A stretch of 64,000 nucleotides of DNA, from the NCBI GenBank assembly GCA_019119495.1, contig DWWX01000003.1, positions 62,001 to 126,000 on the forward strand. Direction: 5' to 3'. Below, piece after piece: positions 5,211 to 7,054 of this stretch. Numbering within the stretch: the stretch's first letter is position 1; every line of letters starts with the position of its first letter. The position numbers and the translations under genes were made by a program. The notes below the pieces were generated by a model that worked only from the letters and a program-made list of their open reading frames with translations, did not search any database and was not told where the DNA came from. The stretch is from Candidatus Gemmiger stercorigallinarum (lineage in GTDB: Bacteria > Bacillota > Clostridia > Oscillospirales > Ruminococcaceae).

Positions 5211-5248
5211 GCACCCCGCTGCCGTTCAACGGTGCGGGGTGCTTTTTT
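5211..5248 (+). terminator. Intra-operon terminator/attenuator between khpA and rimM
   Basis: GCACCCCGC (5211-5219) pairs with GCGGGGTGC (5234-5242) and six T follow. No new promoter is obvious before rimM 23 bases later, so it probably lowers expression of rimM-trmD relative to rpsP. Confidence 0.85.
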
Positions 5249-5270
5249 GCACACAACAAAGGAGAACGCC

Positions 5271-5801
5271 ATGCAAACCTATCTGCCCGCCTGCAAGATC
5301 GTCACCACCCACGGCGTCCGCGGCGAGATGAAAGCCCTGCCCCTGTGCGACGGCGCCGCGTTTTTGTCCGGCTTCAAAACGCTGTATGCCTCCGCCGACG
5401 GCGCCGGCCCCCGCAGACTGCTGGGGGTGCGCGCCCAGGGCAATATGCTGCTGGTCCGGCTGGAGGGCGTTGCCGACATGGACGCCGCCCGCGCCATGGT
5501 GGGCCGCACCCTCTACCTGGACAAGGCGGAGGCCAAGCTGCCCCGGGGCCGCTATTTCATCGACGACGTGCTGGGCTGCGCGGTGGTGGACGCCGCCACC
5601 GGCCGGGAGTACGGCACCGTGGCCGAGGTCAGCCGCCCCGCCGCCCAGGATATCTACACCGTGCGGGACGCAGCCGGCGCCGACCACATGATCCCGGTGG
5701 TGCCGGAGTTTGTCCAGACCATCGACATCGAGGCCCGGAAAATTCTGGTGACCCCCATCCCCGGCATGTTCGACCCGCCGGTGAACGGCGACGAGGAGTG
5801 A
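5271..5801 (+). CDS. rimM: 16S rRNA processing protein RimM
   Basis: A 176-residue protein with N-terminal KIVTTHGVRGEMK (the G-x-HG-x-RGE motif of RimM) and a C-terminal PRC-barrel ending MIPVVPEFVQTIDIEARKI. RimM binds S19 and helps mature the 30S head. The frame is open slightly upstream through the terminator T-run, but AAAGGAGA just before ATG 5271 sets the start. It ends 5 bases before trmD. Confidence 0.95.
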   Translation: MQTYLPACKIVTTHGVRGEMKALPLCDGAAFLSGFKTLYASADGAGPRRLLGVRAQGNMLLVRLEGVADMDAARAMVGRTLYLDKAEAKLPRGRYFIDDVLGCAVVDAATGREYGTVAEVSRPAAQDIYTVRDAAGADHMIPVVPEFVQTIDIEARKILVTPIPGMFDPPVNGDEE

Positions 5802-5806
5802 CCCCC

Positions 5807-7054
5807 ATGCGCATTGACATCGTGACGCTGTTCCCGGAACTGTGCGACAGTTTTCTGCACGCCAGCATATTGGGGCGGGCGGCGGCCAAACATCTGTTCG
5901 AGGCCCACTGCCACCAGATCCGGGACTACACCAAAAACAAGCAGAAGCAGACCGACGACTACCCCTACGGCGGCGGCTGCGGCATGGTGCTGTACGCCCA
6001 GCCCATCGCCGACTGCCTGCGGGAGGTCCAGGCCCAGTGCGCCGCCCAGGGACGCGGCAGGCCCCACGTGGTATTTTTGACCGCCGCCGGGAAACCCTAC
6101 AACGAGGACGTCGCCCGCCGCCTGGCAAAATGTGACGCCCTGACGCTGGTCTGCGGCCACTACGAGGGCATCGACCAGCGGGTGATCGACGCCTTTGGCG
6201 ACGAGGAGCTGTCCATCGGCGACTATGTCCTGACCGGCGGCGAGCTGGCCAGCCTGGTGGTGGCCGACAGCGTGCTGCGCCTGCAGCCCGGCGTGCTGGC
6301 CGAGGAAAAGGGCTACCAGGACGAAAGCTACTGGGACGGCCTGCTGGAATACCCCCAGTACACCCGCCCGGAAAACTGGGAGGGCCGCGCGGTGCCCCCG
6401 GTGCTTTTGACCGGCGACCATGACAGGATCGACGCCTGGCGCGCCAAGCAGAGCCACACCCGCACCGCCGCCCGCCGCCCCGACCTGTACGACCGGTGGT
6501 GCCGCACCCACCCGCTGACCCCCGGCCGCTGGAAACGCACCGAGCGCGCCGCTCTTGTCCGCACCGGCGACCAGCTGGACGCCGCCGCGAAAATTTACAG
6601 CGAGAGCTGGCAGCAGTCCCACCGGGAGGTCTGTACGCCGGACTTTTTGGCCGAACACACGCCGGAGGCCATGCGGCAGCGGTTGGAGGCCGACCGCGCC
6701 GCCGGCTGGGCGTTTTACCTGCACAGCACGGCGGGGCAGGCGGACGCCATCGTGGGCGTCTGCCACAAAACCGGCGAGATCGGCAGGCTGTACGTGGCCC
6801 CCGCGGCACAGGGCAGGGGCATCGGCGCAAAGCTGCTGGCCTTTGCCCAAAAAAAGCTGCCGGAGCACGCCCGGACGTTTGTGACGGTGCTGGAGACCAA
6901 CCGCCCCGCCATCGCGCTGTACCTGCGCATGGGCTACCGGGAAGAAGGGGGCGCGCCGGCGGTTTCACCGGATGCACACCAAACTTTCACAAACCGTGTG
7001 CGGGAGCTGAAATTCGTCCGTATACCGCCGGAAAGCGATAAAATGGGCGGCTGA
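5807..7054 (+). CDS. trmD: TrmD (tRNA m1G37 methyltransferase) fused to a C-terminal GNAT acetyltransferase domain
   Basis: A 415-residue protein. Residues 1-230 are a full SPOUT-fold TrmD: MRIDIVTLFPE, YGGGCGMVL, the AdoMet-binding trefoil knot with GHYEGIDQR (117-125) and SIGDYVLTGGE (136-146), and RRPDLYDRW where free TrmD normally nears its end. After a short linker (about 231-248) the same frame runs into a GNAT domain (about 249-405): VRTGDQLDAAAKIYSESW, the acetyl-CoA motif RLYVAPAAQGRGIG (327-340), and ETNRPAIALYLRMGYRE. The normal TrmD length is 240-250. The GNAT target is unknown. There is no stop or new RBS at the junction. rplS, usually next, is absent. Confidence 0.9.
   Translation: MRIDIVTLFPELCDSFLHASILGRAAAKHLFEAHCHQIRDYTKNKQKQTDDYPYGGGCGMVLYAQPIADCLREVQAQCAAQGRGRPHVVFLTAAGKPYNEDVARRLAKCDALTLVCGHYEGIDQRVIDAFGDEELSIGDYVLTGGELASLVVADSVLRLQPGVLAEEKGYQDESYWDGLLEYPQYTRPENWEGRAVPPVLLTGDHDRIDAWRAKQSHTRTAARRPDLYDRWCRTHPLTPGRWKRTERAALVRTGDQLDAAAKIYSESWQQSHREVCTPDFLAEHTPEAMRQRLEADRAAGWAFYLHSTAGQADAIVGVCHKTGEIGRLYVAPAAQGRGIGAKLLAFAQKKLPEHARTFVTVLETNRPAIALYLRMGYREEGGAPAVSPDAHQTFTNRVRELKFVRIPPESDKMGG

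What the first reader, a model, noticed from the sequence alone, without database searches (positions are those of the whole stretch)
5807..7054. TrmD fused in frame to a GNAT acetyltransferase
Seen: one uninterrupted frame holds a complete TrmD core (knot motifs at 117-125 and 136-146) and, from about residue 249, a full GNAT domain with RLYVAPAAQGRGIG. The TrmD C-terminal tail is replaced and rplS, the normal next gene, is missing. Known: TrmD makes m1G37 and is essential; GNAT enzymes include ribosomal-protein and tRNA acetyltransferases. Inference: acetylation may be coupled to tRNA or translation, or the GNAT domain may only be tethered for co-expression.
Basis: partly seen in the sequence, partly recalled or inferred. 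Interest (0 to 1): 0.72.

Follow-up and report, generated by a model that had tools for sequence, protein, structure and literature searches.

The report
tRNA methylase fused to an acetyltransferase
In a group of gut bacteria an important tRNA-methylating enzyme carries an extra, apparently working acetyltransferase on its tail; similar joins with only distantly related acetyltransferases occur in other gut bacteria, so a hidden link between acetylation and tRNA handling is worth testing.

Summary
The fusion is real. Window 5807-7054 (+) is one 415-aa frame: complete TrmD (residues 1-228), conserved linker (229-250), complete GNAT acetyltransferase domain (about 251-385). It is the only TrmD found in this draft genome. 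One frame holds both domains in 32 of 35 genus genomes and 14 of 31 of a neighbouring genus with Faecalibacterium-titled records. Both halves are under purifying selection (dN/dS 0.04 and 0.13); four key GNAT motif residues are all kept in 41 of 43 sequences. New: TrmD appears to have gained distinct GNAT domains about five times in Clostridia, and other partners, including an MTA/SAH nucleosidase. The lineage also lost rimI, but tested unfused members lack it too, and fused genomes elsewhere keep it, so RimI replacement is not favoured. The GNAT substrate is unknown. I favour an active acetyltransferase tethered to tRNA-binding TrmD; co-expression only is nearly as likely.

The parts
5807..7054 (+). 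trmD-GNAT fusion gene, 415 aa plus stop
   Evidence: translation; Pfam/NCBIfam; only TrmD found in the own draft genome
5807..6490 (+). TrmD (m1G37 tRNA methyltransferase) domain, residues 1-228, with knot motifs CGHYEGID and SIGDYVLTGGE
   Evidence: NF000648 292 bits over residues 1-228; alignment to solved TrmDs; AlphaFold pLDDT 77-98 in 10-residue blocks up to residue 230, except 63 and 59 at 161-180, the interdomain loop
6491..6556 (+). Linker, residues 229-250; W231 C232 H235 P236 W242 K243 R244 E246 invariant in 43 fused proteins
   Evidence: dN/dS 0.095; resembles the basic tails of unfused TrmDs
6557..6961 (+). GNAT acetyltransferase domain, about residues 251-385
   Evidence: PF00583/PF13508/PF13673 above cut-off; complete GNAT fold, pLDDT 80, pTM 0.74; the 50 PDB matches listed are all acetyltransferases
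6785..6826 (+). Acetyl-CoA pyrophosphate-binding motif RLYVAPAAQGRGIG, residues 327-340
   Evidence: sequence; G338 and G340 invariant in 43, G336 in 40 of 43; the role is recalled GNAT knowledge
6899..6922 (+). GNAT motif NRPAIALY, residues 365-372; Y372 is the usual general-acid position
   Evidence: N365 43 of 43, Y372 41 of 43; the role is recalled GNAT knowledge
5232..5801 (+). rimM, upstream neighbour
   Evidence: PF01782 and PF24986
7246..7575 (+). ptsH (HPr), downstream neighbour where rplS stands in some other Clostridia
   Evidence: PF00381; same neighbour in fused and unfused relatives, rplS there in other loci such as L047, L085 and L107

Best explanation
A genuine bifunctional fusion protein. 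SHOWN BY SEQUENCE: a complete TrmD, expected to make m1G37 in tRNA as a knotted homodimer, is joined through a conserved 22-residue linker to a complete GNAT domain with intact acetyl-CoA motifs. It is the only TrmD found, it is present in every genus genome where the gene could be read whole, and both halves evolve under purifying selection. INFERRED: a GNAT gene was captured between trmD and ptsH and the basic C-terminal tail of TrmD became the linker, so every TrmD dimer carries two acetyltransferase domains next to its tRNA-binding surface. MOST LIKELY FUNCTION (inference): an active N-acetyltransferase whose work is tied to the place or supply of TrmD, acetylating an amine on or near the tRNA/translation machinery (a protein, a tRNA-bound amine, or a tRNA-associated polyamine; the fold neighbours include PaiA).
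For: Domains and motifs. One frame in 32 of 35 genus genomes and 14 of 31 of g81. Summed dN/dS over up to 20 pairs that I chose (17-20 usable per region): TrmD 0.04, linker 0.095, GNAT N-part 0.14, GNAT core 0.13, last 33 residues 0.31. Eight linker residues invariant in 43 of 43. 14 of 43, the window among them, have no in-frame ATG/GTG/TTG at residues 229-264, so separate translation of the GNAT from such a start there is not possible in those. Recurrence with distinct GNATs: types B, C, D and E.
Against: No substrate is known. 16 of 31 g81 genomes show TrmD without this GNAT. The N-terminal helices, where GNATs usually hold substrate, vary: W268 with H272 in only 6 of 43; Y372 is lost in 2 and G336 changed in 3 of 43. 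29 of 43 do have an in-frame start-type codon at 229-264. In the whole-protein model residues 241-261 and 267-284 have pLDDT under 50, so no fixed domain arrangement is predicted. In one type-B subclade the domain has decayed past Pfam recognition (L168).
Confidence: 0.5

Rival explanations
1. Co-expression only: a small-molecule GNAT (detoxifying or polyamine type) was captured behind trmD and rides on its expression; the tether has no functional meaning.
For: The nearest free-standing relative met is an ordinary GNAT at G327:C1:1751518-1751895, open frame 212 aa, 34-37% identity. Fold neighbours are general GNATs including PaiA and resistance enzymes. Putative substrate helices diverge. TrmD also fuses to unrelated partners.
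Against: About five TrmD-GNAT joins; an invariant linker; no stand-alone GNAT in the downstream flanks searched, except at L105, which already has a fused one.
Confidence: 0.35
2. RimI replacement: the GNAT took over N-terminal acetylation of a ribosomal protein (bS18) after rimI was lost in this lineage.
For: rimI passes its cut-off in 17 of 17 relatives of other genera and in 0 of 41 g1+g81 genomes tested. polA-rimI-tsaD has become polA-tsaD in 11 of 11 g1/g81 genomes looked at, while 2 of 2 outgroups keep rimI.
Against: 8 of 8 unfused g81 genomes tested also lack rimI. 15 of 15 tested genomes with type B, C or E tails (3 of them decayed) keep rimI. The window GNAT scores 35 bits against a RimI cut-off of 86.
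Confidence: 0.08
3. Acetyl-CoA sensor: the GNAT mainly binds acetyl-CoA and tunes TrmD activity to metabolism.
For: TrmD can be affected by a small metabolite: cAMP binds S. aureus TrmD and is proposed to compete with AdoMet (PMC5217690, passages). Acetyl-CoA motifs are conserved.
Against: The catalytic-type Tyr (41 of 43) and the whole fold are kept. A type-B subclade lost the motif but kept the domain.
Confidence: 0.06
4. Assembly or annotation artefact.
For: Own genome is a draft in 44 contigs, 86.6% complete.
Against: Same frame in 31 other genus genomes and in several single-contig genomes.
Confidence: 0.01

Closest known systems
TrmD, tRNA (guanosine(37)-N1)-methyltransferase
   Same: Full-length TrmD above curated cut-offs, conserved knot motifs and CTD, single copy found in the genome.
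   Different: Carries a C-terminal GNAT domain. The residue aligned with the catalytic Asp169 (named in PMC9508554, passages) is Glu173, also Glu in the 8 fused TrmDs and nearly invariant.
TrmD-Tm1570 fusion (Calditerrivibrio nitroreducens, Desulfovibrio; PDB 8b1n)
   Same: TrmD with an extra enzyme domain fused at the C-terminus (PMC11187310 and PMC1829167, passages; structure hit).
   Different: The partner there is a second SPOUT methyltransferase, not an acetyltransferase.
PaiA-like / general GNAT N-acetyltransferases (PDB 3fnc, 1wk4, 1tiq)
   Same: GNAT fold and acetyl-CoA motifs.
   Different: Only 17-18% identity; covalently joined to TrmD; no shared substrate shown.
RimI, bS18-alanine N-acetyltransferase
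   Same: GNAT superfamily; weak match to TIGR01575.
   Different: 35 bits against a cut-off of 86.4; does not sit in the polA-rimI-tsaD site.
tRNA-acting GNATs (TacT, AtaT toxins)
   Same: GNAT fold acting on a tRNA-borne amine (search listing with abstract openings only).
   Different: Fused to a housekeeping enzyme; no antitoxin was searched for; activity on tRNA untested.

Membership tests
TrmD | Full-length match above NCBIfam equivalog cut-off | tested here: met
   NF000648 292.3 against 220; TIGR00088 273.2 against 195
TrmD | Catalytic Asp169 and Arg154 (E. coli numbering) | tested here: inconclusive
   Arg is kept (R158, 43 of 43); the Asp169 position aligns with Glu173 in 43 of 43, a conservative change also seen in other Clostridial TrmDs. 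Arg154 is recalled, Asp169 from PMC9508554 passages
TrmD | m1G37 methylation activity and homodimer | not testable with these tools
   needs biochemistry
GNAT superfamily | Pfam GNAT match above cut-off and GNAT fold | tested here: met
GNAT superfamily | Q/RxxGxG/A acetyl-CoA motif and N..A..LY motif | tested here: met
   G338, G340, N365 and Y372 all present in 41 of 43
RimI | TIGR01575 score over 86.4 bits | tested here: not met
   35.1 bits
TrmD-Tm1570 fusion | Second SPOUT domain at the C-terminus | tested here: not met
   the Pfam hits after TrmD are GNAT only
aminoacyl-tRNA-acetylating GNAT toxin | Acetylates charged tRNA; paired antitoxin | not tested
   no antitoxin gene was searched for; neighbours are rimM and ptsH; P0001 has no PADLOC match at E 0.01

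The most novel reading that the evidence does not exclude
TrmD is a recurrent docking platform in Clostridia: distinct GNATs have been fused to it again and again because it delivers tRNA. The window protein is then a tRNA-tethered acetyltransferase that acetylates a tRNA-borne or translation-linked amine in step with m1G37 formation, coupling acetyl-CoA supply to reading-frame fidelity.
Probability: 0.15. Interest if true: 0.85.

Novelty: new variant of a known kind. Interest (0 to 1): 0.5.

Why it matters
TrmD is reported as essential (PMC5217690, passages) and m1G37 suppresses frameshifting (PMC8643618, abstract opening). A stable second enzyme on it, kept across a genus of gut bacteria and part of a neighbouring genus with records titled Faecalibacterium, and apparently arrived at about five times with distinct GNATs, points to an unrecognised link between acetylation and tRNA methylation. 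It also gives split, delete and swap constructs that can test whether gene fusions of this kind mean functional coupling or only co-expression.

Tried and rejected
(1) Artefact: rejected by recurrence. (2) rplS loss tied to the fusion: rejected; ptsH follows trmD in fused and unfused relatives alike. (3) Fusion of a neighbouring gene still separate in relatives: a GNAT profile over 991 translated stretches (up to 2,500 bases downstream of trmD in the loci then held) hit only L105, which already has a fused GNAT. (4) RimI replacement: not favoured. (5) Viral carriers: no relative in two scans of viral contigs. (6) PADLOC: no match. (7) Transfer of the fused gene into g81: the TrmD tree joins fused g81 with g1 (95/89, 95/87), while flanking genes (rimM+ptsH+uvrC) put all g81 together (100/99) and reject fused g81 + g1 (p-AU 2e-64). 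But the TrmD data do not reject a single g81 clade (p-AU 0.40), so transfer and ancestral fusion with losses both stay open. The clade test (p 0.006) was mis-set: one Faecalibacterium-titled row (L035) was labelled 'other'; one search corrects it. (8) Enrichment of GNAT among partners: of the 80 loci, 10 have a TrmD frame over 300 aa. I grouped them by eye into about six origins, three of them GNAT; binomial P is 0.00002 to 0.0005 for an assumed 1-3% share of GNAT genes. This is post hoc, the query itself held a GNAT, and the 1-3% was not measured.

Limits. Match lists are cut at about 150 rows, and the A1 profile holds GNAT sequence, so fusion counts are lower bounds and biased to GNAT. In g81 14 are fused, 16 have a TrmD match that ends by residue 249, and 1 (G330) is cut by a contig end and cannot be told; I read the gene itself in 3 of the 16 (L011-L013). 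The 43-row alignment holds 29 of the 31 other fused genus genomes and 13 of the 14 fused g81 genomes, those with loci; L113 in it is cut by a contig end. dN/dS pairs were chosen by me. Types A-E were grouped by eye and BLAST, not by a full GNAT tree. Family names for the unnamed groups f13 and f26 (Oscillospiraceae, Lachnospiraceae) are inferred from titled loci that carry the same type.

Full report
OBSERVATION. The frame at 5807-7054 (+) encodes 415 residues without interruption. Residues 1-228 are TrmD above both NCBIfam equivalog cut-offs; residues 265-377 match the Pfam GNAT family PF00583, and related GNAT models also pass their cut-offs. It is the only TrmD found in the draft genome (2,058,008 bases, 44 contigs, 86.6% complete).

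CLADE. Of 35 genomes of the genus (own included), 32 hold both domains in one frame (G310's runs into a contig end near residue 395), 2 (G312, G321) hold pieces on different contigs, and 1 (G302, 82% complete) has no match. In neighbouring genus g81, 14 of 31 are fused, 16 show a TrmD match ending by residue 249, and 1 (G330) is cut by a contig end. Records titled Faecalibacterium fall with g81: L036 is identical to G081's TrmD over the 228 residues used, and L034, L035 and L036 lie in the g81 clade of the flanking-gene tree. That the window's genus is Gemmiger is my recollection and rests on no call. In a family draw of 297 genomes (list cut at about 150 rows) a match reaching through the GNAT was listed only for five g1 genomes and one g81 genome.

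ANATOMY AND SELECTION. In 43 aligned fused proteins (window, 29 g1, 13 g81) W231, C232, H235, P236, W242, K243, R244 and E246 of the linker are invariant; G338, G340 and N365 are invariant, Y372 is Tyr in 41, G336 is Gly in 40. Summed dN/dS over up to 20 chosen pairs is 0.04 (TrmD), 0.095 (linker), 0.14 and 0.13 (GNAT N-part and core) and 0.31 (last 33 residues). The putative substrate helices vary: W268 with H272 in only 6 of 43. A free GNAT in G327 keeps SWxxSH there. AlphaFold gives the GNAT alone pLDDT 80, pTM 0.74; the 50 PDB matches listed, of 1168, are all acetyltransferases. In the whole protein, mean pLDDT 76, pTM 0.54, most of the junction (241-261, 267-284) is under 50.

CONTEXT. 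trmD lies between rimM and ptsH in fused and unfused relatives of the family wherever enough sequence was held; rplS sits at G000:C7:67719-68042. So the missing rplS is an older arrangement. Unfused relatives end in short, often basic tails, and the linker resembles such a tail.

RECURRENCE. Other TrmDs carry distinct GNATs. Type B, in family f13: L038, L040, L152, L153, L155, L158, with a related subclade L054, L165, L168, L170 whose tail looks decayed by eye and has no Pfam GNAT match in the one scanned (L168). Type C: L077 (Eisenbergiella porci) and L208, L214, L216, L217, L239, L242, L243 of family f26 (L216 is just below the PF00583 cut-off, 20.5 against 20.7; L241, with a shorter tail, has no GNAT match). 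Type D: L105. Type E: L236 from G370. BLAST similarity between types is weak (A to B E 0.002 to 4; A to C 0.0002 at best; A to D 2e-10 at best; 12-sequence database); the TrmD halves lie in different lineages with unfused relatives between, which is why I count separate joins, but no full GNAT tree was made. TrmD frames also join a NifS/IscS-like cysteine desulfurase (L042 by Pfam and NCBIfam; L073 and L101 by eye), an Fe-S protein (L240), an MTA/SAH nucleosidase (L252) and an ASCH domain (L253). In the phylum draw of 348 genomes, of about 150 rows listed only the own genome had a full match; G370 (type E) had a long partial one and G365 a decayed type-B tail, so the fusion looks rare outside these clades.

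rimI. The curated RimI model passes in 17 of 17 relatives outside g1 and g81, and in 0 of 19 g1, 0 of 14 fused g81 and 0 of 8 unfused g81 genomes tested. By tblastn with one outgroup RimI, polA and tsaD are neighbours without rimI in 11 of 11 g1/g81 genomes, and with rimI in 2 of 2 outgroups. But of 67 genomes of other families, chosen to include fused ones, 65 keep rimI, among them all 15 with type B, C or E tails, 3 of those decayed; the 2 misses are unfused. So rimI loss marks this lineage but does not explain the fusions.

HISTORY. The TrmD domain tree groups fused g81 with g1 (95/89; 95/87). Flanking genes group all g81 (100/99). A single transfer of the fused gene, or ancestral fusion with losses, both remain possible because TrmD alone does not reject a g81 clade (p-AU 0.40).

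FUNCTION. [quoted passage not shown] I favour an active, tethered acetyltransferase with a translation-linked substrate, with co-expression only as the main rival.

LITERATURE. Searches for TrmD with GNAT, acetyltransferase, fusion, Faecalibacterium or Clostridial names showed no paper on a TrmD-GNAT fusion in what they listed (all hits; 20 of 151; 10 of 7,536). The TrmD-Tm1570 fusion is known (passages). Only open-licence PMC papers were searched, and family databases may already list the architecture.

Noticed in passing
TrmD makes SAH, so the partner would remove its product.
   Followed up: partly
L042:4001-5860, L073:4001-5875, L101:4001-5881: TrmD frames continuing into a NifS/IscS-like cysteine desulfurase (L042 by Pfam and NCBIfam; L073 and L101 by eye).
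   Followed up: partly
L253:1511-2701 (+): TrmD fused to an ASCH domain (PF04266, E 4.6e-24).
   Followed up: no
L240:1531-2955 (+): TrmD frame continuing into a protein with 4Fe-4S binding domains.
   Followed up: no
g1 and g81 genomes, e.g. L280 (own genome, polA-tsaD): rimI is missing from the polA-rimI-tsaD site in the 11 genomes of both genera looked at.
   Followed up: yes
L054, L165, L168, L170: A TrmD tail related to the type-B GNAT that by eye has lost the acetyl-CoA motif but keeps its length.
   Followed up: partly
window 6323-6325 (Glu173): The residue aligned with the catalytic Asp169 of E. coli/H. influenzae TrmD is Glu here and in other aligned Clostridial TrmDs.
   Followed up: no
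L105, reading frame opening about 138 bases downstream of the fused trmD: A second frame with a weak GNAT match (E 3e-6) follows the TrmD-GNAT gene.
   Followed up: no
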